Assembly: GCA_023150095.1 (NCBI GenBank)
Contig: JAKLLO010000003.1
Coordinates: forward strand, 1-64,000
Origin: Zoogloea sp.
GTDB taxonomy: Bacteria > Pseudomonadota > Gammaproteobacteria > Burkholderiales > Rhodocyclaceae
Direction of reading: 5' to 3'
Length of the DNA stretch: 64,000 nucleotides
The position numbers and the translations under genes were made by a program. Below the pieces are notes generated by a model, which was not told where the DNA came from, made no database searches, and worked only from the letters and a program-made list of their open reading frames with translations. Within the stretch, counting starts at the first letter, position 1; each line of letters opens with the position of its first letter. Of this stretch, positions 9,451 through 54,015 are shown in pieces.

Positions 9451-9494
9451 GCCGATGCCCCCTTCACCCAGCGGTGAAGGGGGCATCGGCTTTT
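9451..9494 (+). terminator. Rho-independent terminator
   Basis: gccgatgcccccttcacc-cagc-ggtgaagggggcatcggc followed by tttt: 18-bp perfect stem. Confidence 0.88.
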
Positions 9495-9666: not shown

Positions 9667-11055
9667 GTGTCTCAGGTCCCTTCTTCCAGCGTTTCTGCTA
9701 TCGAAGTGCTCGCCCTTCAGGCGGCGGTGGTCTCGCACCCGCGTCTGGGGCCGGCCGCGACCGCCTTTGCTTCCGAACTGGCGACGCGGCTTGGTTGCGA
9801 GCGGGTGGCCGTCGGTTTCGTCGAAGATCGTTTTTCGCGGGTGGTTGCGCTGTCCCACGGCACGCTCGGCGAGGGCAGCACCGATACCCTGAGGACAATG
9901 GGCGCGGCGATGGACGAGGCGATCGAGCAGGCCGCGACCGTCATCGCGCCGGCGCCGCCCCATTTGCCGCCGCGCATCATCCTCGCCCACGACGAGTTCA
10001 TCCGCCAGGAGGGGGGCGTTGTGTGCACCATTCCGATCGCGGTGCAGCATGAGCTGGTGGGAGCGGTGCTGCTGCAGTTCCGCCAGGGGAACGCGCCCGA
10101 TCCGGCCGTGATGATGGAATGGGAGCACGCGGTGGCGCTGGTTGGCCCGGTGCTGCATTACATGCGCCACGGCGAGCGGCCCTGGCGCAAGCGCCTGCGG
10201 GATCATCTGCGGCGTGGCTGGGCGGCGCTGAAATCGCCCGCCGGCGATCGCCTGCGGCTGGGCCTGGGCGGCGCGCTGGTGGTGCTGATTGTCTTGCTGC
10301 TGGTGCCCTTCGAATACCGCGTTGGCGGCAATGCGCGGGTGGAGGGTGCGATCCAGCGGGTGCTGGTGGCGCCGGTCGATGGTTTCCTCAAGCGCAGCCT
10401 GGTTCGCCCGGGCGATCTGGTCAAATCCGGCCAGGTGCTGGCCGAACTGGCTGAACAGGATCTGCAGCTCGAGCGCAGCAGGTGGGCGAGCGAGCTTGCC
10501 CAGCACGAAAACGCCTACGGCGCCGCGATGGCGCGGGCTGACCGGGCCCAGCTGGTGATCAGCCAGGCCAAGGCCGAGGAGGCCCGTGCCCAGCTCGAGC
10601 TGGTGGACGAGCAGCTCGGGCGCATCCGCATCGAGGCGCCCTTCGACGGCGTCGTGATCCGTGGCGACCTCAGCCAGTCTCTCGGGGCGCCGGTGCAGCG
10701 GGGCGACGTGCTGCTGACGGTCGCGCCGCGGGAGCGTTTCCGCGTGATCGTCGAGGTGGATGAGCGGGACATTGCCCGCATCCGGGTGGGGCAGGCGGGG
10801 CATCTGGCCCTGTCGGCGCTGCCCTGGGACACCTTGCCGCTGGCGGTCACCCGCATCACGCCGATGGCCAGCGCGGTGGAGGGGCGCAACGTGTTCGAAG
10901 TTGAGGCGGCCCTGTCGGCCCAGCCGGATAACCTGCGCCCGGGGCTGCGCGGCGTGGCGAAGATTTCCGTTGGGCGCGAGCCCCTGGCGTGGGCCTGGAC
11001 GCACCGGCTGATCGACTGGATGCGCATCGGCCTGTGGTCGTGGCTGGGGCACTGA
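9667..11055 (+). CDS. GAF domain + HlyD-type membrane fusion/adaptor protein
   Basis: GAF-like N-terminus, one TM (LRLGLGGALVVLIVLLLVPF), lipoyl-like GDLVKSGQVLAELAEQDL and beta-barrel region. Start uncertain (GTG 9667; CTG 9658 also possible; ORF track start 9544). Confidence 0.75.
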   Translation: MSQVPSSSVSAIEVLALQAAVVSHPRLGPAATAFASELATRLGCERVAVGFVEDRFSRVVALSHGTLGEGSTDTLRTMGAAMDEAIEQAATVIAPAPPHLPPRIILAHDEFIRQEGGVVCTIPIAVQHELVGAVLLQFRQGNAPDPAVMMEWEHAVALVGPVLHYMRHGERPWRKRLRDHLRRGWAALKSPAGDRLRLGLGGALVVLIVLLLVPFEYRVGGNARVEGAIQRVLVAPVDGFLKRSLVRPGDLVKSGQVLAELAEQDLQLERSRWASELAQHENAYGAAMARADRAQLVISQAKAEEARAQLELVDEQLGRIRIEAPFDGVVIRGDLSQSLGAPVQRGDVLLTVAPRERFRVIVEVDERDIARIRVGQAGHLALSALPWDTLPLAVTRITPMASAVEGRNVFEVEAALSAQPDNLRPGLRGVAKISVGREPLAWAWTHRLIDWMRIGLWSWLGH

Positions 11056-11056
11056 G

Positions 11057-13207
11057 ATGACCGGGCCGAGCGCCTTCAGCAGCCAGTGGTACCGGGTGGC
11101 CGGCCTGCACCCGAGCCTGCGCTCGCAGGTGCGGGTGCGCCGGCAGATCTACCGGGACGAGGTGTGGTACGTGCTTGCCGACCCGGTGAGCGGGCGCTTC
11201 CACCGGATGAACGCGGCGGCCTACGCCTTCGTCGGGCGCTGTGACGGCACCCGTACGGTGGACGCGCTGGCCGAGGCGATGCTCGCCGACGACCCCGACA
11301 AGGCGCTCACCCAGGACGAGATCGTGCAGCTGCTGGTGCAGCTCAACCAGCGCGGCTTGGTCCAATGCGAGGTGACGCCGGATGTGGAGGCGATCTTCCA
11401 CCGCCATCACGAGGAGGCGCGCCAGGAGCGTCGCCTGGGGGTGAATCCGCTGGCCTTCCGGGTGCGCCTGGGCGACCCGAACGATTTCCTGAAGCGCTTC
11501 GACCGCTGGCGGTACCTGATCTTCTCGTGGCAGATGCTGCTGGTGTGGCTCGCCGTGATCTGCGCCGGCGGGCTGGTGGCGGCGACCCATTTCGACGCGC
11601 TGTCGTCGGCGGCGCGCACCTGGATGGGCACGCCACGCTTTCTGCTGATCGCCTGGCTCGTCTATCCGCCGATCAAGGCGGTGCATGAGCTGGCCCACGG
11701 GCTGGCGGTGCGGCGCTTCGGCGGCGAGGTGCATCAGACCGGCATCAGCCTGCTGCTGCTCACACCGGCACCGTTTGTGGATGCGTCTGCTGCGGCGGCT
11801 TTCCGGCACGCAGGGCAGCGGGTGATCGTGAGTGGCGCAGGGATCATCACCGAGCTGGCCCTCGCGGGGATTGCGTTGATCGTCTGGGCGCTCGTCCAGC
11901 CGGGGCTGGTGCAGGATCTGGCGCTGGTGGTGGCCGTGGTCGGCGGGGTGTCGACGGTGCTGTTCAACGGCAACCCGCTGCTGCGCTTCGACGGCTATTA
12001 CGTGCTGTGCGATCTGTTCGACCTGCCCAATCTGTCGGTGCGCAGCCGCGCCTTCTGGCGCCATCTGCTGCTCAACCGGTTGCTGCATGTGGCTGGCGTG
12101 CCGTCCCCCGAGCCGGGGCGGGGCGAGCTGCCGTGGCTGGTGTTCTACGCGCCGGCCTCGTGGATCTACCGGGTGGGGCTGTCGATCGCGATCGTCGGCT
12201 GGATCGGCAGCTGGTCGATGGTGCTCGGGGTGATCGCCGGCGTCGCCACGCTGTTCGCGCTGATCGGCAAGCCGGTGCTCGGCTTCTGGCGGGGCCTGCT
12301 GCGCATGGCGCTGCCCGAGGCCCAGCGCCGCCGCGCGCTGCGGGTGGCGGGCGGGCTGTCGGTGGCGGTGGTGCTGCTGATCGGGGTGATCCCGGTGCCG
12401 TTCTCGACCGTCGCCCAGGGCGTGGTGTGGATTCCGGAGCAGGCCCAGCTGCGGGTTGGCACCGATGGCTTCATCGTGGCCATGGAAGGCCGGCACGGCG
12501 ACAGGGTGGAGGCGGGGCAGGTGGTGCTCCGGCTCGAGGATGCCCGACTCGTCACCGACGACGCAAAGCTGCGCAGCCAGCTCGAAGGGCTCAACGCCGA
12601 CCTTTTCCTGGCCATGCAGCGCGATCCGGTGAAGGCGCGGGACGTGGAAGCCGACATCGGGCGGGTGACGGCCCAACTCAGGCGGGTTGAGGAATTGCAG
12701 GAGGCGCTGGTGCTGCGCGCCGGGGTGGCCGGCCAGCTGACCATGCCGCGTCAGGCGGACGTGGATGGCGCCTTCGTTCCCCGCGGCGCGCTGCTCGGCC
12801 ATGTCTTCACCGGCGAACCGGCCACGGTGCGGGTGGCGGTGGAGCAGGACGTGGCGGCGCTGGTGCGCTCCGACACCCGCCAGGTGGGCGTGCGTCTGGC
12901 CGAGGCGCCGGGCGAGACGCTGCCGGCGCGGCTGCTGCGGGCGGTGCCGGCAGCGACCGAAAAACTGCCCAGCCCGGCCCTGGGCGACTTTGCCGGTGGC
13001 CGCTTTGCGGTCGATCCGACGGATGAGGACCACCAGCGTACGCCGACGCCGGTGTTCGTCTTCGATCTGGTGGTGGATGGCCTCATCCCCGAACGGGCCG
13101 GCGGGCGGGTGTGGGTGCGTTTCGACCACGGCTGGGCGCCGCTTGCGGTGCAGTGGGCGCGCCAGCTCAAACAACTCTTCCTCAGCAACTTCAATCCCGC
13201 CACGTGA
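11057..13207 (+). CDS. PqqD-like domain + M50-type site-2 metalloprotease + HlyD-like adaptor fusion
   Basis: N-terminal PqqD/RRE-like region; VHELAHGLAVRRFGGEV (HExxH) and FNGNPLLRFDGYYVL second M50 motif; C-terminal lipoyl/HlyD segment. Confidence 0.82.
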   Translation: MTGPSAFSSQWYRVAGLHPSLRSQVRVRRQIYRDEVWYVLADPVSGRFHRMNAAAYAFVGRCDGTRTVDALAEAMLADDPDKALTQDEIVQLLVQLNQRGLVQCEVTPDVEAIFHRHHEEARQERRLGVNPLAFRVRLGDPNDFLKRFDRWRYLIFSWQMLLVWLAVICAGGLVAATHFDALSSAARTWMGTPRFLLIAWLVYPPIKAVHELAHGLAVRRFGGEVHQTGISLLLLTPAPFVDASAAAAFRHAGQRVIVSGAGIITELALAGIALIVWALVQPGLVQDLALVVAVVGGVSTVLFNGNPLLRFDGYYVLCDLFDLPNLSVRSRAFWRHLLLNRLLHVAGVPSPEPGRGELPWLVFYAPASWIYRVGLSIAIVGWIGSWSMVLGVIAGVATLFALIGKPVLGFWRGLLRMALPEAQRRRALRVAGGLSVAVVLLIGVIPVPFSTVAQGVVWIPEQAQLRVGTDGFIVAMEGRHGDRVEAGQVVLRLEDARLVTDDAKLRSQLEGLNADLFLAMQRDPVKARDVEADIGRVTAQLRRVEELQEALVLRAGVAGQLTMPRQADVDGAFVPRGALLGHVFTGEPATVRVAVEQDVAALVRSDTRQVGVRLAEAPGETLPARLLRAVPAATEKLPSPALGDFAGGRFAVDPTDEDHQRTPTPVFVFDLVVDGLIPERAGGRVWVRFDHGWAPLAVQWARQLKQLFLSNFNPAT

Positions 13208-13209
13208 CG

Positions 13210-15159
13210 ATGCCGCTGGACCTGCGTGCGCCTCTGCCGGGGCTGGTGTGGGGCGCTTATCCGGAACGTCGGGAGCCACCCCGGCGCAGCTGGCCGTGGC
13301 AGCGCGCCGGGTACCGCCGGCAGCTGGCGGCCGTGCGCGCGGCGCTGGCGGGCTGGCGGATGCTCGACGAGGCCGGCTTCGCCGCCCGTCTGCGGACGGT
13401 GCAGGGCTGCCTCGGGCGGGACGGGCTGGCGGGCGACGCGCTGATCGACGCCCTTGCCGCCGCGGTGGACGCGGCCCGGCGCAGCCTGGGCATGGCGGCC
13501 TACGACACCCAGCTCCACGCTGCGCTGGTGATGCTCGACAACCGTCTGGCCGAGATGGCCACCGGCGAGGGCAAGACGCTCGCCGCGGCGCTCACCGCCG
13601 CCGTCGGCGCGCTGGCCGGGATGCCGGTGCATGTGCTCACCGCCAACGATTATCTGGTGGAGCGGGACGCCACGTACCTCGCGCCGTTCTATGCCCGGCT
13701 GGGCCTGCGGGTGGATTGCGTCACCGGCGAGATGAGCGAGGCCCGGCGTCGCATGTCGTACGCCGCGCCGGTGTGCTACGTGACGGCGCGGGAACTGGTC
13801 TTCGATTACCTGCGCGACGGGCAGCGCCGGGGCCACGCCCGGGGCGACCTGCAGCGTCGGGTGGCGGCCCTCGGCGGCGGCGAAACCGTCCAACCCCTGC
13901 TGCGCGGCCTGTGCATGGCGGTGGTGGATGAGGCCGACAGCCTGCTGATCGACGAGGCGATGATGCCGCTGATCCTCTCCCGCCAGGTGCGTGACAGCGG
14001 GGCGCGGGCGTTCTTCTGGCAGGCCTGGTCGCTGGCTGGCGAGCTGGTTGTGGGGGTCGAATTCAAGGTGGATGCGCCGGCGATGCAGGTGCGCCTCACC
14101 GACGCCGGCCGGGCGCGCCTGGCCGGCCGGGTGGCGGCCCTGGGCGGGCGCTGGCGCTCCGCGCGGCTGCGCGAGGAAGTGGTGGCGCTGGCGCTGGCGG
14201 CGCGTCACCTGTATCGCCGCGACGTGCATTACCTGGTGCGCGACGGGCAGGTGGAGATCATCGACGAGATCACCGGCCGCGCCGCGCCGGGCCGGGTGTG
14301 GTCCCGCGGGCTGCATGGGCTGGTGGAGCTGAAGGAGGGTTGCCGGCCGTCGCCCGCCACCGAGACGCTCGCCCAGATCACCTTCCAGCGATTCTTTCCG
14401 CGCTACCACCGCCTGTGCGGCATGAGCGGCACGCTGCGCGAGGCGCGCGGCGAGTTGCGGGAGGTGTACGGGCTGGATGTCGTGTGCATTCCGTCACGGC
14501 TGCCGACCTCAAGAAAATCGTTTCCGGGCCGTTTATACGGGGCAAGACACGCTTTGTGGGACGCCGTCGCCCGTCGGGTCGCCGAGATCCGGCAGACGGG
14601 GCGTCCGGTGCTGGTGGGCACCTCGTCCGTGGCCGAGTCGGAATCCCTGTCGGCCAGCCTTGCTGCAGCAGGGGTTGCGCACACGGTGCTCAACGCCCGT
14701 TTCGACGCCGAGGAGGCCGCCATCGTGGCCCGGGCGGGTGAGCCGGGGCAGGTGACGGTGGCCACCAACATGGCAGGGCGGGGGACGGATATTCCGCTGG
14801 CGGCCGGTGTCGCGGCGGCGGGAGGGCTCCACGTGATGTGCTGCCAGTTCAATGCGTCGCGCCGGATCGACCGGCAGCTGGAAGGGCGCTGCGCCCGCCA
14901 GGGCGACCCGGGCAGCGTGGAGACGTGGATCAGCCTGGATGTGGCCCGGGTGGCGGAGGTGCCGCTGCTGGGCCTGCTGGCGCGTCGGTACGGGATGACG
15001 CCGGACGGTGCGGTGAAGGTCGGGCCGCACCTGCTGCGGGCCTTGCTGGGCTGGTACCAGCGGCGTCAGGCGGGGCAGGAGCGGCGGGCGCGATGGGCTT
15101 TGTTGCAGGCGGATCGGGAGTGGGAGCGCGGGCTGTCCTTTGGCGGCTCTGGGGAATGA
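13210..15159 (+). CDS. SecA-like preprotein translocase ATPase, truncated/divergent
   Basis: MATGEGKTLAAAL Walker A, VVDEADSLLIDEA Walker B, VTVATNMAGRGTDI, SRRIDRQLEGRCARQGDPGS. 649 aa, much shorter than housekeeping SecA; no C-terminal Zn-binding tail. Confidence 0.87.
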   Translation: MPLDLRAPLPGLVWGAYPERREPPRRSWPWQRAGYRRQLAAVRAALAGWRMLDEAGFAARLRTVQGCLGRDGLAGDALIDALAAAVDAARRSLGMAAYDTQLHAALVMLDNRLAEMATGEGKTLAAALTAAVGALAGMPVHVLTANDYLVERDATYLAPFYARLGLRVDCVTGEMSEARRRMSYAAPVCYVTARELVFDYLRDGQRRGHARGDLQRRVAALGGGETVQPLLRGLCMAVVDEADSLLIDEAMMPLILSRQVRDSGARAFFWQAWSLAGELVVGVEFKVDAPAMQVRLTDAGRARLAGRVAALGGRWRSARLREEVVALALAARHLYRRDVHYLVRDGQVEIIDEITGRAAPGRVWSRGLHGLVELKEGCRPSPATETLAQITFQRFFPRYHRLCGMSGTLREARGELREVYGLDVVCIPSRLPTSRKSFPGRLYGARHALWDAVARRVAEIRQTGRPVLVGTSSVAESESLSASLAAAGVAHTVLNARFDAEEAAIVARAGEPGQVTVATNMAGRGTDIPLAAGVAAAGGLHVMCCQFNASRRIDRQLEGRCARQGDPGSVETWISLDVARVAEVPLLGLLARRYGMTPDGAVKVGPHLLRALLGWYQRRQAGQERRARWALLQADREWERGLSFGGSGE

Positions 15160-16112
15160 CGACAATGAAGAAATGGGTGTTGAGCTGCGCGTGCTGGGGG
15201 CTGGCCGGAATGGCCGGGCTGGCTGCGGCCGCCGGTCCGCAAGGGGCCGGCGGAAGCGCGGGCGCCGCTTCGTCTGGAACCCTCGGCTGCCTGATCGAAC
15301 CCGACAAGGTGGCCGATCTGGGTAGCGCGGTGATCGGCGTGCTCGACAGCCTGCGCGTCGAGCGCGGCGATGTGGTGCGCAAGGGCCAGGTGCTGGCCGT
15401 GCTGCGCAACGACGTCGAACGCGCCACGGCCGAGGTCGCCCGGTCGCGCGCCGCCACCGAGGCCGACCTGCGCAGCGCCGAAGCCAGCCGTGATCTGGCG
15501 CGCCAGAAAATGCGCCGGGCCGAAGATCTGGTGGCGAAGAATTATGTGGCCCAGCAGGCCCTCGATCAGGCCCGGGCGGATTTTCAGGTGGCCGAGCAGA
15601 AAGTGCTGCAGACCCGTGAACAGCTGCGGGTGTGGAGCCGTGAGGTTGGTGTCGCCGAAGCCCAGGTCGGGCTGCGGACGATCCGCAGCCCCTTCGATGG
15701 TGTGGTGGTGGAGCGCTACCTTTCCCAGGGCGAACGTGTCGAGGAGAAGCCGATCTTCAAGGTGGCAAAGGTGGACCCGCTGCGCATCGAGGTGATCGTG
15801 CCCGCGGCCCGCTTCGGCACCATCCGGGTCGGCGAAGTGGCCAGCGTGAAGCCGGATCTGCCCAATGCGGCGCCGGTGGATGCCTCCGTGGCGCTGGTGG
15901 ACCGCGTGGTGGATGCGGCGAGCAACACCTTCCGCGTCCGGCTGGCCCTGCCCAACCCCGGCAACGCGCTGCCTGCGGGCCTGCGTTGCCGGATCACGTT
16001 TGGTGAGACAGCACCCCAGACGCCCATTGCGCTTGCCGGGGCCCGCCTGGTGGGCGGCATGCGCATGGATTCCAGCCTCTCATCCTTCAAGGAAAAGAAC
16101 CGGCGCCAATAG
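15156..16112 (+). CDS. HlyD/RND-type periplasmic adaptor subunit
   Basis: Signal peptide MKKWVLSCACWGLAGMAGLAAAAG, GVLDSLRVERGDVVRKGQVLAVL lipoyl half motifs, LRTIRSPFDGVVVERYLSQGERV. ATG overlaps the stop of the upstream SecA-like gene (alternative ATG 15165). Confidence 0.85.
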   Translation: MTTMKKWVLSCACWGLAGMAGLAAAAGPQGAGGSAGAASSGTLGCLIEPDKVADLGSAVIGVLDSLRVERGDVVRKGQVLAVLRNDVERATAEVARSRAATEADLRSAEASRDLARQKMRRAEDLVAKNYVAQQALDQARADFQVAEQKVLQTREQLRVWSREVGVAEAQVGLRTIRSPFDGVVVERYLSQGERVEEKPIFKVAKVDPLRIEVIVPAARFGTIRVGEVASVKPDLPNAAPVDASVALVDRVVDAASNTFRVRLALPNPGNALPAGLRCRITFGETAPQTPIALAGARLVGGMRMDSSLSSFKEKNRRQ

Positions 16113-16118
16113 TCGTTC

Positions 16119-25100: not shown

Positions 25101-28100
25101 GCGGGCAGTTCGGTCAAATACCTGGCGATCAACAACTTCACGGCGTCCGGCATCCGCATCGAGAACACCTCGAATGTCACCGTCGCCGGCAACTACCTCG
25201 GTACCAACCTTGCGGGCAGCGCGGCGGCCGGTAACGAGGTTGGCGTGGTGATCTACAACGCCTCGAACAACCTCATCGGCGGAACCACCGTCGCCAGCCG
25301 CAACGTCATCTCCGGGAACACGGTGGATGGCGTCCAGATCTTCAGTGGCGGCGCGACCGGCAACGTGGTGTCGGGCAACTACATCGGCCTCGACGCCACC
25401 GGTACGGTGGATCTCGGCAACGCCAGCCAGGGCGTGGCGATCTTCGCCGGCGCAACCTACAACACCATCGGTGGCACCACCGCCGGCGCCCGCAACGTGA
25501 TCTCGGGCAACAACGGGGTCGGGGTACGGATCAGCGAATCCGGCACCAATTTCAACACCATCAGCGGCAACTACATCGGCACCAACGCCGCGGGCAACGC
25601 GGCCATCGGCAACACCCTGCAGGGCGTCCAGATCGACACCGGCAGCGGCAACGTCATCGGGGGCACGGTGGCCGGGGCCGGCAACGTGATCTCCGGCAAC
25701 CTCGATAACGGCATCCTCATCACCAACGGCGGGGTGAACAACTACGTCCAGGGCAACATCATCGGCCTGGACGAGAGCGGCACCACGGTGATCGCCAACG
25801 GCCAGGAAGGCGTCGAGGTGACCGTCGGGGCCAGCGGCACCTGGATCGGCGGCACCACCTCGGCCACCCGCAACATCATCAGCGGCAACACCTGGCAGGG
25901 TATCGGCGTGTATGGCGCCACCACCACCGGCACGGTGATCCGCGGCAACTGGATCGGCGTGGCGGCCGATGGCACCACCGCCCGCGGGAACGAGAAGCAG
26001 GGCATCCTCGTCAGCGACGCCACCAACACCATGATTGGCGGCTCGAACGCCGGTGAGGGCAACATCATCGCCAACGCCGGGGTGGGCCACCAGGGGGTGG
26101 TGATTGCCGGCGCCTCGACCGGCGTGGTGATGATCGGCAACAGCATCTACGCCAACAGTGGCCTCGGCATCGACCTGGGCGGCGACTGGATCACCGCCAA
26201 CGATACCGGCGACGCCGACACCGGCGCCAACAACCTGCAGAACACCCCGGTGCTCACCTCGGCGGCGACCACCGGCAGCGCGATCACCATCACCGGCACC
26301 CTCAACAGCGTTGCCAGCACCCACTTCCGGATCGAGTTCTTCGCCAACCCTGCGCCGGATTCCTCCGGCTACGGCGAAGGCCAGACCTACCTGGGTTTTG
26401 TCGATGTGCTGACCGACGCCAGTGGCAACGCCAGCTTCAGCCCGACCATCACCGCTGCGGTGCCCACCGGCGAGGTGGTGACCGCCACCGCCACCCGCCT
26501 CACCTCGGGGATGAGCTTCGTCGAGACCTCCGAGTTCGCCGCCGACATCTACACCAACCCGCCCGCCATCACCAGCAACGGCGGCGGCAGCACGGCGGCG
26601 GTGTCGGTGGCCGAGAACACCACCGCAGTAACCACCGTCACCGCCACCGACCCCGACGGCGCCGCCCAGACCCTGACCTACAGCCTTGCCGGCGGCACCG
26701 ATCAGGGCAGGTTCCAGATCAACAGCAGCACCGGCGCGCTCAGCTTCCTCGTTGCCCCGAACTTCGAAGCGCCCACCGATGCCGACAGCAACAACGTCTA
26801 TGAAGTGATCGTCCAGGTTGCCGACGGCACCGGCGCCACCGACACCCAGACGATCAACGTCACCGTCACCAACGCCAACGACGCGCCGGTCATCAGCTTC
26901 GTGTCGGGCAACGCCAACTACCCGGAAAACGCCGGCCCGGTGCTCGTGGCCGCGTCCGCCACCGTCACCGACGAAGATGGCGGCAACTTCGACACCGGCC
27001 GGCTGGTCGTGCAGTTCACCGCCAACGGTCAGGCCGAGGACCGCATCGCCATCCGCAACCAGGGCACCGGCGCCGGCCAGATCGGCATCTCGGGCAGCAA
27101 CGTGACCTACGGCGGCGTGGTGATCGGCACCTGGACCGGCGGCACCAGCGGCAGCACGCCGCTCATCGTCACCTTCAATGCCAGCGCCAACGCAGCGGCG
27201 GCCCAGGCGCTCGGCCGCAACATCACCTACGAGAACGTCTCCGACAACCCCTCCACGGCCGTGCGAACCATGGCCGGCTACCTGGAAGACGGCGACGGCG
27301 GCACCAGTAACACCGCCAGCGGCACCATCACGATGGTGCCCGCCAACGACGCCCCGACGATCACCAGCGCCGCCACCGCCAACGTGGCCGAGAACACCAC
27401 CGCGGTGCTCACCGTCACCTCGTCCGACACGGACGGCGGAACGCCGGTCTATTCGATCGTCGGCGGCGCCGACGCGGCGAAGTTCTCCATCAACAGCACC
27501 ACGGGCGCCCTGAGTTTCCAGTCGGCGCCCGACTTCGAGGCGCCCACCGACGCCGGCGGCAACAACGTCTACGACGTGATGGTGCAGGCCGCAGATGGGG
27601 CAGGGGGCACCACCAGCCAGGCCATCGCGGTGACCGTCACCAACGTGAACGAAGCGCCGGTGGTCACCATCACCCCCGCCACCTACGCGGCGACCGAGCA
27701 GACCACCCTGACCCTCAGTGGCACCGGCCTGTCCATCGCCGATGCGGATGCCGGTGCTGCCACCCTCCGGGCAACCCTCAGTGTCGTTTCGGGCACCCTC
27801 ACCGTCGGTGTCGGCACGACCGGCGTGACGGTGGTTTCGGGGTCCGGCAGCGCCAGTGTGGTGCTCGAGGGCTCGCAGGCCCAGCTCAACGATCTGCTGG
27901 CGGGCAACGCAGGGGGCACCATCAGCTACCTTTTCGGCGGCGATGCCCCGCCGGCAACCGACACGCTGACCCTCAACGTCAACGATCTTGGCAGCACCGG
28001 CAGCGGTGGTGCGGCAAGCGGCGCCGACAGCGCCACGATCAACCTCACGGCGGTCAATGATGCGCCGGTGAACACCGTTCCCGGCGCCCAGGCCACCAGC

Positions 28101-31100
28101 GTCAACACCTCACTGACCTTCGGCACTGCCACCAGCAACCCGATCGCCATCAGCGACGCGGACGCCGCCAGCGCCACCATGCAGGTGAGCCTGACCATCA
28201 CCAACGGCACCTTCACCTTGGCGTCCACCGCCGGGCTGAGTTTCACCACCGGCGATGGCACTGGCGATGCCGCGATGACCTTCACCGGCACCATCGCGGC
28301 CATCAACGCCGCGCTCGACGGCGCCAGCTTCATCCCGACCACTGCGTACAGCGGTGATGCCTCCATCGCCCTCGTCACCAGCGATCTCGGCAACACGGGC
28401 GGTGGCGCCCTCACCGATTCCGACACGATCCACATCCAGGTGGGGGCGAGCCGTTTCCAGGAAGGCGTCGGCGGCTATACCGGCACCCAGGACACCTACG
28501 TTCAGGACACCACGCCGACCACCGCCTACGGTGCGGCCAGCACGGTGCTGGTGGATGACGGCTCACCGCAGAGCCAGGGCCTGCTGCGCTTCGACAACCT
28601 CTTCGGCAGCGGCGTCGGGCAGATACCCTTCGGCGCGACGATCACCTCTGCCTCGCTGTCGTTCTATGTCACCAACCACGACGCCGCCGACACCGTTTAC
28701 CTGCACCGGATGTTCTCCGCCTGGACGGAAGCTTCCACATGGAACAGCCTCGACTCCGGCATCCAGACCAACGACGCCGAAGCTGGCACTTCCGCAACGC
28801 TCAGCTTCAGTGCAGGCGTTTCCGGCTGGAACACCGTCACGGGCCTCCAGAGTACGGTGCAGGCGTGGGCCGACGGCGCAACCAACAACGGCTGGGCTTT
28901 CCTGTCCGTCAGTCCCGGCGCAGACAACTGGACGTTCGCGTCGTCCGAATACGCCACCGTCAGCCTGCGTCCTTACCTCGTCATCAACTACGAAGCGCCA
29001 ATCGCGCCTGTCATCACCAGCAACGGCGGCGGCGCGAGCGCAGCGGTCAGCATCGCCGAGAACACCAGCGCCGTCACCACCGTCACGGCCACCGACGCCG
29101 ACAGCACGCCCAGCGAGCTCAGCTACAGCATCGTCGGTGGCGCGGACGCCGCGAAGTTCACCGTCAACAGCAGCACCGGGGTGCTGAGCTTCCTCGCCGC
29201 GCCTGACTACGAATCCCCCACCGACTCTGGCGGCAACAACATCTACGACGTCACCGTCCAGGTCAGCGACGGCTTCCTGACGGATACCCAGGCCATCGTC
29301 GTCACGGTGACACCGACGAACGACAACACCCCGGCGATTACTAGCAGCGCCAGTGCGAACGTCGCCGAGAACACCACGGCCGTGATGACCGTCACCGCGA
29401 CGGATGCCGACCTGCCGGCCCAGACTCTGACGTACAGCATCGTCGGCGGGGCGGACGCCGCCAACTTCTCGATCAACAGCAGCACCGGCGCCCTCAGCTT
29501 CGTCACCGCGCCTGACTACGAAGCGCCCACCGATTCCGGCGGCAACAACATCTACGACGTCACGGTGCAAGTCTCCGACGGCACGCTGACGACCACCCAG
29601 GCCATCGCTGTCACCGTCACCTCGGCGAACGACAACACCCCGTCAATCACCAGCAGCGCCACCGCGAACGTCGCCGAGAACAGCACCGCGGTATTGACCG
29701 TGACCGCCACCGACGCCGACCTGCCGGCGGAGACCTTCAGCTTCAGCATCGTCGGCGGCGCCGATGCCGCGAAGTTCACCATCAACAGCAGCACCGGCGC
29801 GCTGAGCTTCGTCACCGCCCCCGACTACGAAGCGCCCACCGACTCCGGCGCCAACAACATCTACGACCTCACCGTCCAGGTCTCCGACGGCACTCGCAAC
29901 GCGACGATGGCGCTGGCAATCACCGTCACCAACCGCAACGAAATGCCCCAGGGAAGCACGGGTCGCGTGACCGTTGCCGAGGATGTGACCCACGTCTTTG
30001 CGATGGCCGACTTTGGGTTTGCCGATCCGCTGGATGCGTCGGCCAACAGCCTGGCGGACGTCCAGATCGTCACCGTTCCCACGCGCGGTAACCTGACCCT
30101 CGACGGGGCGGCCGTGGCGGACGGGCAGTGGATCGCCGCTGCCGACATTGCTGCCGGGCGGCTGCGCTTTGCCGCGGAGCCCGACGAGAACGGCACGGCT
30201 TACGCCTCGCTGGCGTTCCGGGTGCGGGACGATGGCGGCACCGTCGACGGTGGTGTCGATACCGAGTCAGGCAGCCACGTCCTGACCATTGACGTCAGCC
30301 CGGTCAATGACAGCCCGGTGGCCCATGGCGATGCCTACAGCCTCGACGAGGATACGCCGCTGGTCGTCAGCAGCGCCGGCGGCCTGCTCGCCAACGATGG
30401 CGACATTGACGGCGATGCGCTGTCGGCCGGGTTGCTGGGCGGTCCGGCGCACGGCAGCCTGAGCCTGGCGGCCGACGGCAGCTTTGTTTACACGCCCGAC
30501 GCCGACTGGTTTGGCGCCGACAGCTTCATCTATCGCGCCATTGACGGCAGCGCCGTCGGTGCGCCGGTTACCGTCAGCCTGGTGGTGCGCCCGGTCAATG
30601 ACGCACCGACGATCGTCCGCGCCAGCCTGCAGCTCATCCAGGGCGGCAGCACCGTGCTTGCGGCCGATGCGGTGTCGGCGGTGGACGTGGATTCGGCTGC
30701 GGGCGACGTGGTGTTTGTGGTGGATTCGGTCAGCCACGGCCACTTCGAGCTGCAGTCTGCGCCTGGCGTTGCGGTCGGGCAGTTCAGCTACGCGGCGCTG
30801 GCGGCCGGCAAGGTGGTGTTCGTCCACGAGAGCATCCTGAACCTGCCGGTCGTCGTGTTGCATCCCAGCGACGGCCTTGCCGACGGTGCGCCGCTGGCGG
30901 CCAGCGTCGGTTATTCGGGCACCAGCGTGCTCGTGCCGCCGGGAGGGGCGGGCGGTTCGGAGGAGCCTGTGGTGGTCGTGCCGCCGGTCGTCATCGCGCC
31001 CACCACGCCGACGGCGCCCGCCACGAACACCCCCAAACCCGCCGAGACGGCCAAGCCTGCGACGCCGCCTGCCTCGACGCCGGTCATCCGGCCAGACACC

Positions 31101-31652
31101 GCGGCCACGCTTGAGGGCGACTCGGCTGCCATCAGCGTGACGCCGGCCGTTGGCACTGAAGGCGCTGACGCTCATGTGCGGCGATATTCTGCCGAAAACA
31201 GCTCGGTGAGGTTTGGCAACGCCCAGATCACCCTCAGCCTTGGCGCCAGCACGCAAGGGCCGTTGATGGAGTTCATGCTCGGCGCGGTGGACACCAGTCA
31301 GGCCAACGCCAGTTCGACCGGCAACCGTCAGTCCACCCCGGAGAAGGCCAAGGTGCCGCCGCTGGGTGACGACGCCTATGCCGACGTGCGCGTCGTGCTC
31401 AACGCCGTGGAGCTCTCGGGGATTGCGCTGTCGGTGGGCGCGGTGTGGTGGGCAACCCGGGCCGGCGGACTGGTGGCCAGCCTGCTGATGGCCGCCCCGG
31501 CCTGGCGAACCTTCGATCCCTTGCCGGTGCTCGGCCCGCGCGACGAGGAGGAGGGCGACTGGGGCGAAATGATGGATGACGAGATGGCACGAGACGAAGA
31601 AGGCGCAGCAGACGTGTTCGACGAACACCGCACCACGGGAGCCCGCGGGTGA
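16119..31652 (+). CDS. Giant modular surface protein (5177 aa): LEPR-XLL-like N-terminus, DUF4347, repeat beta modules, CSLREA/beta-helix x3, delta-60 repeats, cadherin-like repeats, DNRLRE domain, C-terminal hydrophobic segment
   Basis: IETFESRILYSADP N-terminal motif; ELVFVDARVPDVQQLLDDL...VVGHGASGVAQLG...LLLYGCDVG (DUF4347); GKISLREAI (CSLREA); QPDGKILVAGYSSNG...TLDTSFGGGDGIV (delta-60); VAENTTAVMTVTATDADLPAQTLTYSIVGGADAAKFSINSSTG (cadherin-like). Confidence 0.9.
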   Translation: MKSRRHRRALIETFESRILYSADPGPAGIVAAVLAGSAHPGDGTTAIQQGGTELVFVDARVPDVQQLLDDLSAQQQAGRPIEVVLVGSDEDGIGVIGSTLAGRSDVSAVHVVGHGASGVAQLGASALDAGSVFQRAGEIAAWGDALSADADLLLYGCDVGEGDAGQSLVTTLAQLAGADVAASDDPTGSALLGGDWDLEMRTGMVEATPFASANVQAEWTRVLALTTQGSETLVNTTTTGTQTENWSNKSVAMDANGNYVVIWMDGSGATDTGIGIYGQRFNASGVAQGAQFHVNTYTADNQRNPTVAMDASGNFVVVWESSGQDGSSYGIYAQRYNSSGVAQGSEFRVNTTTTYDQIEASVAMDANGNFVIAWQSWSQDLVNTNGIYAQRYNSSGVAQGSEFLVNTYTTESQTEPSVAMDAAGNFVIAWQSFGQDGDNEGIYAKRYNSSGVVQGSEFHVSTYTTSNQDLPVVAMDSTGNFVVVWESNQDGSGNGIYGQRYNSSGAAQGSEFRINTTTTNQQQNPVLTMLAGGAFAVTWQSTAQDGSFDGVYMRQYDSSGTALTAETLVNTTTTDYQDVPSIAADEKGHLVVVWHGNGPGDADGIFMQRYVYAVAPVLTLTGYSGTYVENAGVIYDAGATVTDADTTTFTGGQLIYQITANGTASDELGIRNQGTGAGLIGLSGTNVTYGGTTIGTYSGSFGNGSTPLTVTFNSNASVAAVQALVRNVTYRNTSDNPSTATRSISLTVSDGTGMTSTPAVVSMAVTAVNDAPIITSAASASVAENTTAVMTVTSSDVDGGTPVYSISGGVDAAKFTINSSTGALSFAAAPDYETPTDSGGNNVYDVTVQVSDGAGGTATQAIAVTVTDVSSALVVTTTADTNDTGLGSSFTAEQLNASKGTDGRISLREAIIAANTTAGTDTISFNIPDALVSGTHTIKPTTALPTITGAVIIDGTTEPDYVVGRPVVEIDGSLTGSGVNGLVLGAGAGGSTIRGLAINSFNSSNGYALYLMAGADGNVIEGNIIGLDADGTTAVPTMSNFGVYVASSGNTIGGTTTAARNVLSNNINAGVALYGSNNVVIGNYIGTDATGTLARGNGNDGADVYGGANNRVGGTTAAERNIISGNQRNGIEVSTGLTGTLIQGNYIGTDVSGTLSLGNNYGGIWVGSSSTGVTIGGTAAGAGNTIVNNPTGGIYTDTSSVSFSLLGNTFYNNTNLAIDLKNDGVTANDAGDADTGPNSLQNFPVITSARIDGAGHLAVVGTLASSASSYYRIEFYANATQDASGYGEGQRYLGYVNVATNGAGNASFNTVLAVSMAVGESVTATATKSNVSYSSYTDTSEFAADVLVSVNLIPVVTTTGSTLAYTENGAATAVDSALTVSDSDSPNLSGATVSITSGFASGQDTLAFTDQSGITGSWSVATGVLTLSGSASVASYQAALRSITYVNTAEQPSTATRTVSFAVTDGLGTSTAATRNISVASVDDAPSFNAADFTVTTAPGSAADRGYATTIQPDGKILVAGYSSNGSNLDFLLMRYNADGTLDTSFGGGDGIVTTAIGSSDDEAHAVVLQSDGRIVVAGFTTSGIQRDFALVRYLADGTLDTTFGGGDGIVTTDIGSSSTDEAWSMVVQTDGRIVLGGNSAGDFAVVRYLADGSLDTSFSGDGKATVDLAAATDTGYGLALQSDGKLVQSGSATVGATLDFGVVRYNTDGSLDTSFGGGDGIVTTPVGSSFDIAQSVAVQSDGKIVVGGYSTNGSNNDFAVIRYTSAGAIDTGFGGGDGITTVDFGGHDASWSTALQSDGRIVMVGGASSSDLAAVRLLSDGSLDTSFSGDGKFSAYLGTSSFLYSAAIGADGRVVATGYSNTTTDDVLLVRLSGDGQFDSRSNPATTSLGGSASYTENASAVVIDSSVRLFDTELNAADSYAGATLALARSGGANAQDVFSASGNLGTLTQGGSLLLSGVNVGTVTTNSSGTLLLTFNASATQLRINEVMSAIAYANSSDAPPASVTLSWTFSDGNAGGQGAGGAKTATGSSTINITAVNDAPVITSSASTSVAENTTAVITVTATDPDSGAPSYSIVGGADAAKFTINSSTGVLSFVSAPDYEAPTDAGANNVYNLSVQVSDGSATAVQAISVTVTDVASTLIVDTTADTNDTGLGSSFNAEQLNASKGTDGRISLREAIIAANTTAGLNTISFNIAGTGPHSIALASALPTVTDAVIIDGNSEPDYAGTPVVELNGTSAGTTSGLVLGAGSSGSTVRGLAINRFNLSGIEVIDGSAGNLIAGNYIGTDVTGLLGYGNGKWGIDLNTAGAGNVIGGNASAVRNILSGNGMGGIAIDGGSVTGTIVQGNYIGVGADGVTQLGNTGYGAILVFGEGQALIGGTGAGEGNLIASNLAGVTISYSTTDNVILGNRFLGNGGIGIDLGGDGVTANDVGDADTGASRLQNYPVLSSAVSNGSQVDIAGSLNSEANSYYRIEFFGSSSAHASGYGEGATYLGYTNVATNASGNASFSATLTAVVPNGTIISATATLSNASYSTFVATSEFAANITAVASNIAPAGTTGTVTATEDTTYTFATSDFGFTDPDANALLRVWIDSLPAAGTLRLNGSTFGAGTGILASDISAGRLTYQPLANSNTSTSLTFRVQDDGGTVNGGQDTDASANTLTIAITAVNDAPVITSSATASVAENTTAVMTVTATDVDLPAQTLSYSIVGGADAARFSINASTGALSFATAPNYESPTDAGGNNVYDVTVQVSDGALTSTQAIAVSVTPVNDNTPTITSNGGGASASVSIAENTLIVTSVTATDADLPGDTLTYDISGGVDAAKFTIDSNTGVLQFIAAPDYENPTDSGANNVYNLTVRVSDGTNTDTQAIAVTVTNVASELIVTTAADTADGNTSSIANLIANKGADGKISLREAITAANNTAGADTITFAIGSGAQIINLTSALPTITSVIHIEGDSQAGFTGEPVIALNGASAGAGTIGLLFSGSGAAGSSVKYLAINNFTASGIRIENTSNVTVAGNYLGTNLAGSAAAGNEVGVVIYNASNNLIGGTTVASRNVISGNTVDGVQIFSGGATGNVVSGNYIGLDATGTVDLGNASQGVAIFAGATYNTIGGTTAGARNVISGNNGVGVRISESGTNFNTISGNYIGTNAAGNAAIGNTLQGVQIDTGSGNVIGGTVAGAGNVISGNLDNGILITNGGVNNYVQGNIIGLDESGTTVIANGQEGVEVTVGASGTWIGGTTSATRNIISGNTWQGIGVYGATTTGTVIRGNWIGVAADGTTARGNEKQGILVSDATNTMIGGSNAGEGNIIANAGVGHQGVVIAGASTGVVMIGNSIYANSGLGIDLGGDWITANDTGDADTGANNLQNTPVLTSAATTGSAITITGTLNSVASTHFRIEFFANPAPDSSGYGEGQTYLGFVDVLTDASGNASFSPTITAAVPTGEVVTATATRLTSGMSFVETSEFAADIYTNPPAITSNGGGSTAAVSVAENTTAVTTVTATDPDGAAQTLTYSLAGGTDQGRFQINSSTGALSFLVAPNFEAPTDADSNNVYEVIVQVADGTGATDTQTINVTVTNANDAPVISFVSGNANYPENAGPVLVAASATVTDEDGGNFDTGRLVVQFTANGQAEDRIAIRNQGTGAGQIGISGSNVTYGGVVIGTWTGGTSGSTPLIVTFNASANAAAAQALGRNITYENVSDNPSTAVRTMAGYLEDGDGGTSNTASGTITMVPANDAPTITSAATANVAENTTAVLTVTSSDTDGGTPVYSIVGGADAAKFSINSTTGALSFQSAPDFEAPTDAGGNNVYDVMVQAADGAGGTTSQAIAVTVTNVNEAPVVTITPATYAATEQTTLTLSGTGLSIADADAGAATLRATLSVVSGTLTVGVGTTGVTVVSGSGSASVVLEGSQAQLNDLLAGNAGGTISYLFGGDAPPATDTLTLNVNDLGSTGSGGAASGADSATINLTAVNDAPVNTVPGAQATSVNTSLTFGTATSNPIAISDADAASATMQVSLTITNGTFTLASTAGLSFTTGDGTGDAAMTFTGTIAAINAALDGASFIPTTAYSGDASIALVTSDLGNTGGGALTDSDTIHIQVGASRFQEGVGGYTGTQDTYVQDTTPTTAYGAASTVLVDDGSPQSQGLLRFDNLFGSGVGQIPFGATITSASLSFYVTNHDAADTVYLHRMFSAWTEASTWNSLDSGIQTNDAEAGTSATLSFSAGVSGWNTVTGLQSTVQAWADGATNNGWAFLSVSPGADNWTFASSEYATVSLRPYLVINYEAPIAPVITSNGGGASAAVSIAENTSAVTTVTATDADSTPSELSYSIVGGADAAKFTVNSSTGVLSFLAAPDYESPTDSGGNNIYDVTVQVSDGFLTDTQAIVVTVTPTNDNTPAITSSASANVAENTTAVMTVTATDADLPAQTLTYSIVGGADAANFSINSSTGALSFVTAPDYEAPTDSGGNNIYDVTVQVSDGTLTTTQAIAVTVTSANDNTPSITSSATANVAENSTAVLTVTATDADLPAETFSFSIVGGADAAKFTINSSTGALSFVTAPDYEAPTDSGANNIYDLTVQVSDGTRNATMALAITVTNRNEMPQGSTGRVTVAEDVTHVFAMADFGFADPLDASANSLADVQIVTVPTRGNLTLDGAAVADGQWIAAADIAAGRLRFAAEPDENGTAYASLAFRVRDDGGTVDGGVDTESGSHVLTIDVSPVNDSPVAHGDAYSLDEDTPLVVSSAGGLLANDGDIDGDALSAGLLGGPAHGSLSLAADGSFVYTPDADWFGADSFIYRAIDGSAVGAPVTVSLVVRPVNDAPTIVRASLQLIQGGSTVLAADAVSAVDVDSAAGDVVFVVDSVSHGHFELQSAPGVAVGQFSYAALAAGKVVFVHESILNLPVVVLHPSDGLADGAPLAASVGYSGTSVLVPPGGAGGSEEPVVVVPPVVIAPTTPTAPATNTPKPAETAKPATPPASTPVIRPDTAATLEGDSAAISVTPAVGTEGADAHVRRYSAENSSVRFGNAQITLSLGASTQGPLMEFMLGAVDTSQANASSTGNRQSTPEKAKVPPLGDDAYADVRVVLNAVELSGIALSVGAVWWATRAGGLVASLLMAAPAWRTFDPLPVLGPRDEEEGDWGEMMDDEMARDEEGAADVFDEHRTTGARG
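18753..18869 (+). repeat. Internal near-identical duplication, copy 1 (CSLREA module)
   Basis: gccgacaccaacgacaccggcct...gaggcgatcatcgccgccaacaccac recurs at 22566 with about 3 differences by eye. Confidence 0.85.
22566..22682 (+). repeat. Internal near-identical duplication, copy 2 (CSLREA module)
   Basis: Same 117-bp block as 18753-18869. Confidence 0.85.
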
Positions 31653-33214
31653 AACTCCGTTTCCCGACCCTCAACCCGGTCGCCCGCATCTCGCTGGGCC
31701 TCGTGGCGCTGGTGGTGTCGCTGCTGATGGCGGCCGACCTGGTGTTCGGGTTGATCCCCGACCGCTCCGCGCTGGCCCGCCAGGTGCGCCAGCAGATCAG
31801 CGAGAGCCTGGCGGTGCAGGCCGCCACCCTGCTCCAGTCCGGTGACGTGAAGACGCTCCAGAGCACCCTTGACAGCGTGATCCAGCGCAACACCGAGGTG
31901 CGCTCGCTGGCCGTGCGCCAGCAGGGCGGCGCGATCATCGCCGAGGCCGGCGACCACGGCCTCTGGTGGCGCCCGCCCGAGGACGGCTCGTCCACCCTCA
32001 CCCAGGTGCGGGTGCCGGTGCTGGCCGACAACAAGCCGTGGGGCGAGGTGGAGCTGGTGTTCAAGCCAGTGTTGCCCGAAACGGTTGGCGAATGGCTCAC
32101 CTATCCCACCCTGGTGGCCATGCTCACCATCTCGCTGGGTGGCTTTCTGGCGTTCTACCTGTATCTGCGCAGGGTGCTCGAATACCTCGATCCGGCCAAG
32201 GCGATTCCCGACCGGGTGCGCACGGCCTTCGACACCCTGGCCGAAGGCGTGCTGGTGCTCGACAAGCAGGGGCGCGTGGTGCTGGCCAACAAGGCCTTCC
32301 GTCACTTCCACCCGGAAGCCCAGGAGGACATGACCGGCCGCGCGGTGACCGAGCTCAGCTGGCTTGTCGAAGGCTTCCACGCCACGCCTGACAACCCCTA
32401 CCCGTGGGTGACGGCGATGGAGCGCCGCAGCAACTCCGGCGACCACACCCTCGAGATGGCCCGCCCGGGCGAGGAGGAGCCGCTGCGTGCCATCGTCGGC
32501 TGCTCGCCGATCCTTGATGGCCACGGCCGGTTGCGGGGCTGCCTGGTCAACTTCTCGGATGTGACCATGCTGCACCGGATCAACGACCAGCTGCTCGGCA
32601 CGCTGGTGGATCTGGAAGCCTCGAAGGAAGAGATCCGCCGCCAGAACGAGGAGCTCCACCGCCTCGCCACCCGCGACCCGATGACCGGCTGCCTCAACCG
32701 CCGGGCCTTCTTCGGCGCGGCCGATCCCCTTTACGAACAGCTCAAGGCGGAAGGCGAGGAGGTGTGCTGCATCATGAGCGATATCGACCACTTCAAGTCC
32801 TTCAACGACCGCTACGGCCACGCGGTGGGCGATCAGGTCATCAAGTCGGTGGCCAAGTGCCTGGGCACCGATCTGCGGGAGGTGGACATGCTGTGCCGTT
32901 ACGGCGGCGAGGAGTTCTGCATCATGCTGCCCGGCGCCACGCCGGAGCAGGCCGCCGAGGTGGCCGAGCGGCTGCGCGCCGCCATCGAAAACCACGCCGG
33001 CGCTGCGGTGCGGGACATTCCGGGCATCCGCATCACGTCGAGCTTTGGGGTGGCATCGATCCGCAGCGGGGCGAAAGATCCGGCCGAACTCATCGACCAG
33101 GCCGACAACGCCCTTTACCAATCGAAGCAGAGCGGCCGCAACCGGGTGTCGGTGTGGGCCGGCGAGCGGTCGGTGGGGGCTGACGCCAATGTGCCGGAGG
33201 TGGCGCACCACTGA
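31649..33214 (+). CDS. Membrane-anchored PAS-GGDEF diguanylate cyclase
   Basis: Two TM segments, PAS-like region, LREVDMLCRYGGEEFCIMLPG with an I-site-like RxxD. GTG start overlaps the stop of the giant gene (gtga). Confidence 0.9.
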   Translation: MKLRFPTLNPVARISLGLVALVVSLLMAADLVFGLIPDRSALARQVRQQISESLAVQAATLLQSGDVKTLQSTLDSVIQRNTEVRSLAVRQQGGAIIAEAGDHGLWWRPPEDGSSTLTQVRVPVLADNKPWGEVELVFKPVLPETVGEWLTYPTLVAMLTISLGGFLAFYLYLRRVLEYLDPAKAIPDRVRTAFDTLAEGVLVLDKQGRVVLANKAFRHFHPEAQEDMTGRAVTELSWLVEGFHATPDNPYPWVTAMERRSNSGDHTLEMARPGEEEPLRAIVGCSPILDGHGRLRGCLVNFSDVTMLHRINDQLLGTLVDLEASKEEIRRQNEELHRLATRDPMTGCLNRRAFFGAADPLYEQLKAEGEEVCCIMSDIDHFKSFNDRYGHAVGDQVIKSVAKCLGTDLREVDMLCRYGGEEFCIMLPGATPEQAAEVAERLRAAIENHAGAAVRDIPGIRITSSFGVASIRSGAKDPAELIDQADNALYQSKQSGRNRVSVWAGERSVGADANVPEVAHH

Positions 33215-33236: not shown

Positions 33237-33291
33237 AAACAATCAAGGCCGGATTATTGCAATTTCAGCAACAATCCGGCCTTGATTGTTT
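33237..33291. terminator. Bidirectional hairpin terminator between convergent operons
   Basis: aaacaatcaaggccggatt...aatccggccttgattgttt: 19-bp perfect stem with A/T-rich ends. Confidence 0.85.
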
Positions 33292-53854: not shown

Positions 53855-54015
53855 GTCCACCGTCCGCTGGCCCGCCTGCGGCAGTGTGCGGTGTTGATGA
53901 CGCTCACAGGGCTTTTCCCGGCTTAACCGAACTTAACCCGGCGCTTCGGTATAGTTGGCCGTGATTGTTCCCGAGTTCAAGCCGGCCCGTGGGGCTGGCG
54001 TACAAAAGGCAGTTC

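What the first reader, a model, noticed from the sequence alone, without database searches (positions are those of the whole stretch)
9667..33214. Candidate dedicated export/processing system for one giant DUF4347 surface protein
Seen: six same-strand genes with tiny gaps or overlaps (11055/11057, 13207/13210, 15159/15156, 16112/16119, 31652/31649) bounded by terminators at 9451-9494 and 33237-33291. They encode GAF-HlyD, PqqD-like-M50-HlyD, a short SecA-like ATPase, HlyD, the 5177-aa protein and a GGDEF protein. Established: giant adhesins usually use T1SS (ABC+HlyD+TolC, RTX signal), TPS or autotransporter routes. None of these hallmarks is present here; I saw no RTX nonapeptides, peptidase-ABC exporter or barrel domain. 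Inference: a SecA-like motor, a site-2-type protease and three adaptors jointly export or process the giant protein.
Basis: partly seen in the sequence, partly recalled or inferred. Interest (0 to 1): 0.88.

Follow-up and report, generated by a model that had tools for sequence, protein, structure and literature searches.

The report
SecA-driven exporter for giant proteins
This operon encodes a probable secretion machine, powered by a cut-down SecA motor instead of the usual ABC pump, together with the 5,177-residue protein it most likely exports; the machine's genes were listed in 2015 with no known role, and here they are tied to one class of giant proteins that share a short N-terminal tag.

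Summary
The operon is real and as described. GAF-HlyD, PqqD-M50-HlyD, short SecA and HlyD form a conserved module in Proteobacteria, also found in Nitrospirae and Omnitrophota MAGs. Kamneva et al. 2015 (PMC4452313) reported it as a T1SS-like locus of unknown role, so the machinery is not new. What I did not find in the literature searched is the cargo. Giants with an N-terminal LEPR-XLL motif occur in 24/28 module genomes versus 4/222 others in the window's order, and in 32/39 versus 9/310 across the phylum. In both samples they lie next to the module far more often than chance (18/67 and 16/39; expected 0.9 and 0.6). Motif variants follow the M50-HlyD tree. M50-HlyD resembles the daptide RRE-site-2-protease, whose precursors carry a similar leader (ELExMEAP), so I infer that its PqqD/RRE domain reads LEPR-XLL and its protease removes it. 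The short SecA would push the chain; HlyD adaptors plus a TolC-type protein would form the conduit. DUF4347 is predicted caspase-like; its nucleophile is the only cysteine in the 5,177-aa protein. The 'one dedicated giant' idea needs widening: the genome has three such systems, and one class lacks SecA.

The parts
9451..9494 (+). terminator-like hairpin upstream of the operon
   Evidence: perfect GC-rich stem followed by TTTT
9667..11055 (+). GAF-like domain + HlyD adaptor
   Evidence: HlyD_3, HlyD_D23 in Pfam; GAF above cut-off in homologues
11057..13207 (+). PqqD/RRE - site-2 protease (M50) - HlyD fusion
   Evidence: PqqD above cut-off; resembles daptide intramembrane metalloprotease NF041824, E 2.6e-44; HExxH and D312 invariant; AF2 pLDDT 85.5, C-terminal half matches MexA
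13210..15159 (+). short SecA-like ATPase (DEAD, PP_bind, NBD2 only)
   Evidence: Pfam and NCBIfam; alignment to canonical SecA stops near residue 600 of the B. subtilis protein; motor motifs invariant
15156..16112 (+). HlyD-type periplasmic adaptor
   Evidence: HlyD_D23, HlyD_3; RND_mfp model above cut-off
16119..31652 (+). giant cargo protein, 5177 aa
   Evidence: LEPR-XLL NF012209, DUF4347, delta-60, cadherin, tandem-95 and DNRLRE repeats
16152..16187 (+). LEPR-XLL leader motif ETFESRILYSAD (aa 12-23)
   Evidence: NF012209 18.0 bits against cut-off 17; no hydrophobic signal peptide
16278..16787 (+). DUF4347 domain, caspase-like fold, candidate dyad His114 / Cys157
   Evidence: PF14252; AF2 and Foldseek; conservation; Cys157 is the only cysteine in the protein
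31437..31532 (+). C-terminal hydrophobic segment with PAWRTFDPLPVL, followed by an acidic tail
   Evidence: conserved in five complete giants; profile found almost only in genomes with these systems
31649..33214 (+). PAS-GGDEF putative diguanylate cyclase
   Evidence: a GGDEF gene directly follows all five complete giants
33240..33289 (+). terminator-like hairpin downstream
   Evidence: long inverted repeat read in the sequence

Best explanation
The operon encodes an ABC-less relative of type I secretion together with its own cargo. Supported by comparative data: the four-gene module (GAF-HlyD, PqqD-M50-HlyD, short SecA, HlyD) is functionally tied to giant proteins that start with a basic N-terminus and the LEPR-XLL motif. 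Inferred steps: (1) the PqqD/RRE domain of the membrane protein binds the LEPR-XLL leader of the unfolded, nearly cysteine-free chain; (2) the short SecA, an intact motor without the parts that contact SecYEG, pushes the chain; (3) the M50 active site removes the leader; (4) the HlyD parts, with a TolC-family protein encoded elsewhere, form a conduit to the outside; (5) the C-terminal hydrophobic PAWRxxDPLPVL segment stops transfer and holds the giant on the cell, where the caspase-like DUF4347 domain could cut it for processing or release, possibly under control of the linked GGDEF protein.
For: Co-occurrence: order sample 24/28 against 4/222, Fisher 2e-25, by genus 16/17 against 3/104; phylum sample 32/39 against 9/310, and 8 of the 9 exceptions carry the related type C M50-HlyD. 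Adjacency: 18/67 LEPR genes within 10 kb, all same strand, 0.9 expected; 16/39, 0.6 expected. Leader variant follows the M50-HlyD tree: 4 changes against 21.4 in shuffles. No signal peptide. RRE-site-2-protease resemblance to the daptide enzyme, whose precursors carry ELExMEAP (PMC10036551). Active sites invariant. TolC-family genes beside type B and C modules and beside LEPR giants in this genome. DUF4347 caspase-like with the only cysteine.
Against: No experiment. RRE-leader binding rests on analogy; motif-tree agreement can also come from shared inheritance. A few SecA-less loci and type C show SecA is not always needed. No TolC gene in the window's operon. Four type A loci lack an adjacent giant; 4 of 28 and 7 of 39 module genomes had no LEPR hit, some of them incomplete drafts. 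The short SecA does not form a pore and the pore role of M50-HlyD is only proposed.
Confidence: 0.65

Rival explanations
1. The module only processes or tethers the giant, while a conventional T1SS ABC transporter elsewhere moves it across the inner membrane.
For: HlyD/TolC parts are T1SS-like; HlyD-OEP pairs lie beside another LEPR giant in this genome.
Against: No RTX or C-terminal T1SS signal; no ABC gene in the conserved module (also stated in PMC4452313); a dedicated SecA motor would have no job.
Confidence: 0.15
2. The short SecA works with SecYEG, so the giant crosses the inner membrane by a Sec route and the HlyD/TolC or a TpsB-type protein serves only the outer step.
For: SecA ancestry; the C36 paralogue module sits beside TpsB and a TpsA that has a normal signal peptide.
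Against: The short SecA lacks the scaffold, wing and two-helix-finger region that contacts SecY; LEPR giants lack a signal peptide; no SecY gene in the module.
Confidence: 0.12
3. Module and giants are neighbours only because both travel on the same mobile or niche-specific islands.
For: One module (C36) has no LEPR cargo beside it; four type A loci lack an adjacent giant; genomes of one genus are not independent.
Against: Genus-level association 16/17 against 3/104, tight same-strand adjacency in two samples, and leader variant tracking module type.
Confidence: 0.05

Closest known systems
Secondary SecA_DEAD / T1SS-related locus of Kamneva, Poudel and Ward 2015 (PMC4452313)
   Same: Same gene set and order (GAF-HlyD, M50, SecA_DEAD without SecA_SW, HlyD), sometimes with OEP; the authors already proposed SecA plus M50 in place of the ABC transporter.
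   Different: No cargo, leader, PqqD/RRE or DUF4347 link was reported; the role was called completely unknown.
Type I secretion system (HlyB-HlyD-TolC)
   Same: HlyD-type adaptors and, in related loci, an adjacent TolC-family protein.
   Different: No ABC transporter in the module, no RTX or C-terminal signal; motif is N-terminal.
Daptide RRE-site-2-protease (DapP, NF041824; PMC10036551)
   Same: N-terminal RRE/PqqD fused to an intramembrane protease (E 2.6e-44); precursors share a short acidic leader motif, ELExMEAP.
   Different: Score below the NF041824 cut-off (151.9 against 300); here a HlyD domain is fused on and the partner is a giant protein, not a peptide.
SecA2 / accessory Sec
   Same: Second SecA-family ATPase in addition to canonical SecA.
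   Different: All SecA2 models far below cut-off; no SecY2; partners are HlyD/M50 proteins.
DUF4347 type VI effector chain 9qpe_G
   Same: Same domain family and fold; His-Gly and Gly-Cys motifs align.
   Different: There a stand-alone type VI effector; here an N-terminal domain of giant proteins.

Membership tests
Kamneva secondary SecA_DEAD locus | second SecA_DEAD protein without a full SecA_SW domain | tested here: met
Kamneva secondary SecA_DEAD locus | neighbouring GAF-HlyD, M50-like and HlyD genes | tested here: met
   compared with PMC4452313
Type I secretion system | ABC transporter in the gene set | tested here: not met
   none among the six window genes; no ABC gene recurs in the conserved module
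Type I secretion system | HlyD-type membrane fusion protein | tested here: met
Type I secretion system | TolC-family outer-membrane protein | tested here: inconclusive
   none in the window operon; adjacent in type B and C loci; many OEP genes in the genome
Type I secretion system | RTX repeats in the cargo | tested here: not met
Accessory Sec (SecA2) | score above a SecA2 model cut-off | tested here: not met
   410 of 1085, 408 of 725, 367 of 930 and 334 of 1100 bits
Two-partner secretion | TpsB partner in the operon | tested here: not met
   none in the window operon; present only beside the C36 paralogue
LEPR-XLL proteins (NF012209) | model above curated cut-off near the N-terminus | tested here: met
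   18.0 against 17 bits
Site-2 protease (M50) | HExxH and distal NPxxxxDG in a membrane domain | tested here: met
   invariant H210, E211, H214, N306, P307, D312; but Pfam M50 score is below cut-off, 16.3 against 27.2
RRE/PqqD leader-binding domain | PqqD model above cut-off | tested here: met
   30.4 against 23.4 bits; PqqC/D chain 5sxy found by profile
RRE/PqqD leader-binding domain | binds the leader of its substrate | not testable with these tools
   needs binding assay or complex prediction
Clan CD (caspase-like) peptidase, for DUF4347 | caspase-like fold and His-Cys dyad | tested here: met
   single cysteine at the dyad position
Clan CD (caspase-like) peptidase, for DUF4347 | proteolytic activity | not testable with these tools
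   no assay

The most novel reading that the evidence does not exclude
A separate secretion system for giant surface proteins: an N-terminal peptide tag (LEPR-XLL) read by an RRE domain, as in ribosomal peptide natural products, removed by an intramembrane protease that is also the inner-membrane channel, with a SecA-derived motor in place of the ABC transporter, HlyD/TolC as conduit, and a caspase-like domain holding the cargo's only cysteine for later cutting.
Probability: 0.4. Interest if true: 0.9.

Novelty: new variant of a known kind. Interest (0 to 1): 0.74.

Why it matters
It gives a conserved but roleless gene module a concrete job, and gives a widespread class of giant proteins (reading frames of up to about 19,000 residues in the genomes searched) a candidate exporter and a candidate signal. 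If right, SecA motors have been recruited into T1SS-like machines, and RiPP-type leader recognition has been reused to sort very large proteins. The core claim can be tested with three gene deletions and leader changes in a cultivable carrier.

Tried and rejected
A classical signal peptide on the cargo: rejected by hydropathy. SecA2 or accessory Sec: below model cut-offs. TPS as the route for the window giant: no TpsB in the operon, although the C36 paralogue has one. DUF4347 as the common cargo feature: rejected, since Ramlibacter and type B cargos have LEPR-XLL but no DUF4347. Short SecA as a strict requirement: rejected by type C and a few SecA-less loci. Literature searches found only PMC4452313 for the machinery and two incidental LEPR-XLL mentions; preprints and subscription journals are largely not covered. 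Complex prediction of RRE with leader was not available. The PVC and Chlorobi members named in PMC4452313 were not examined.

Full report
Observation. The window belongs to a draft genome of 5.04 Mb; the nearest relatives by the M50-HlyD protein are Zoogloea MAGs, 77% identical. Gene products: HlyD with a GAF-like N-terminus; PqqD-M50-HlyD fusion; SecA motor core; HlyD; 5177-aa LEPR-XLL/DUF4347/cadherin protein; PAS-GGDEF.

Prior art. Kamneva, Poudel and Ward (2015, PMC4452313) already described 'secondary SecA_DEAD' proteins lacking SecA_SW in a conserved locus with GAF-HlyD, M50-like and HlyD genes, proposed that SecA and M50 stand in for the ABC transporter, and called the broader role 'completely unknown'. 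So the machinery is known; the paper does not mention LEPR, DUF4347 or PqqD.

Survey of loci. With the M50-HlyD protein as bait I found strong matches in 28 of 250 genomes of the same order, in 39 of 349 genomes across the phylum (strong = 500 bits or more, my cut), and the best 80 named loci, from Beta-, Gamma- and Alphaproteobacteria, Desulfobacterota, Nitrospirae and Omnitrophota (many are MAG labels). Of 122 loci annotated (at least three are duplicates of one place), 106 had a short SecA called and at least three more had one hidden by the gene caller. Two subfamilies emerge: A (window-like) and B (like the C36 paralogue in this genome). By my count, 25 of 29 type A loci with enough sequence are followed by a LEPR-XLL or DUF4347 giant; L105, L107, L123 and L160 are not.

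Link to LEPR-XLL. In the order sample 24 of 28 module genomes have LEPR-XLL proteins against 4 of 222 others (Fisher 2e-25; by genus 16/17 against 3/104). One of the four is a 23-residue frame and the other three lie near a distant relative of M50-HlyD. In the phylum sample it is 32 of 39 against 9 of 310; without the three genomes shared with the order sample, 30 of 37 against 8 of 309. Eight of the nine exceptions carry the distant M50-HlyD, and only one of 262 genomes with neither has a hit. Physical linkage: 18 of 67 LEPR genes within 10 kb of a module, all same strand, 0.9 expected; 16 of 39, 15 same strand, 0.6 expected, in the phylum sample. Many drafts are fragmented, so these are minima. 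Genomes within a genus are not independent; the genus-level table is the fairer one.

Type C. The distant M50-HlyD loci (L166-L168) hold a LEPR giant with a different ending (ALEPRxLFDGA), an OEP/TolC gene, HlyD, GAF-HlyD-like and M50-HlyD genes but no short SecA. The window's genome seems to have all three types: A in the window; B on C36, probably serving the LEPR giant on C286 (IEPRVLLSAE), which lies next to an OEP gene on the same strand; C on C171, probably serving the LEQRLVFDGAA giant on C47, next to HlyD and OEP genes. These pairings across contigs are inference.

Leader. Nearly all giants inspected start with a basic stretch and then LEPR-XLL, with no hydrophobic core: maximum 12-residue hydropathy 1.02, against 2.4-2.5 for two true signal peptides. 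Motif variants ([YHF]S, [LM]S, [FL]D) need 4 changes on the M50-HlyD tree, against 21.4 in shuffles and a minimum of 2; shared inheritance of module and cargo would produce this too.

Recognition and cleavage (inference). M50-HlyD resembles the daptide RRE-site-2-protease (E 2.6e-44, below that model's cut-off). Daptide precursors carry ELExMEAP, and alanine changes in that motif, or loss of the RRE of a different daptide protein (MpaB), abolish modification (PMC10036551). ExLEPR looks like that motif, hence the proposal that the PqqD domain reads LEPR-XLL and the protease removes it. Active-site residues are invariant. The AF2 model is good (pLDDT 85.5); its C-terminal half matches MexA.

Motor. 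The SecA aligns to canonical SecA through NBD2 and stops near residue 600 of B. subtilis SecA, so, from established knowledge of SecA, the region that contacts SecY is gone, while Walker motifs are invariant. A motor working with another membrane partner is inference.

DUF4347. Its core is confidently modelled (residues 52-187, pLDDT mostly above 80). Foldseek gives the DUF4347 effector chain 9qpe_G and then caspases, and a profile search independently finds 9qpe_G at E 0.008 with the His-Gly and Gly-Cys motifs aligned. In 17 of 19 DUF4347 giants read (1,168-5,177 aa each, many truncated), the candidate nucleophile is the only cysteine; most giants without DUF4347 have none. This fits a working cysteine enzyme in otherwise cysteine-free cargo; activity is not shown.

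C-terminus and regulation. Five of five giants with a true C-terminus end in a hydrophobic segment with a PAWRxxDPLPVL-like motif and a charged tail (two further frames end in runs of N and were not counted). The profile hits 16 of 250 order genomes: 13 with a module, 2 with the distant M50-HlyD, 1 weak hit elsewhere. In all five the next gene is a GGDEF protein, which suggests c-di-GMP control (inference).

Confidence. Module-cargo link about 0.9; export as the function about 0.75; the full mechanism about 0.4.

Noticed in passing
L006/L015 (G000:C36, about 10786-28178): A paralogous module in the same genome is followed by a TpsB (ShlB, POTRA_2) and a giant TpsA-like protein with a normal signal peptide, not by a LEPR giant.
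   Followed up: partly
L166 2661-17517, L167 2082-16936, L168/L169: Type C systems: LEPRxLFDGA giants with OEP, HlyD, GAF-HlyD and M50-HlyD but no short SecA; energy source unknown.
   Followed up: partly
window 16278-16787: DUF4347 looks like a caspase-like enzyme whose nucleophile is the only cysteine of a giant protein; this holds in 17 of 19 giants read.
   Followed up: yes
window 31437-31532: Conserved C-terminal hydrophobic segment with PAWRxxDPLPVL and charged tail, not covered by any Pfam family reported here; possible cell-surface or membrane retention signal.
   Followed up: partly
L110 6947-7765, L054 16940-17266 and related loci: Many type B modules also carry a SapC gene and a small DUF3467 gene between giant and GAF-HlyD.
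   Followed up: no
G309:C115:112865: A LEPR-XLL open frame of 19,427 residues in a module-carrying genome.
   Followed up: no
L158 (MAG labelled Candidatus Omnitrophota): GAF-HlyD and M50-HlyD directly followed by a LEPR giant without a local SecA, far outside Proteobacteria if the label is right.
   Followed up: no
window 53965-56747: A separate TolC-family gene and a HlyD-like adaptor gene, apparently an ordinary efflux operon.
   Followed up: no
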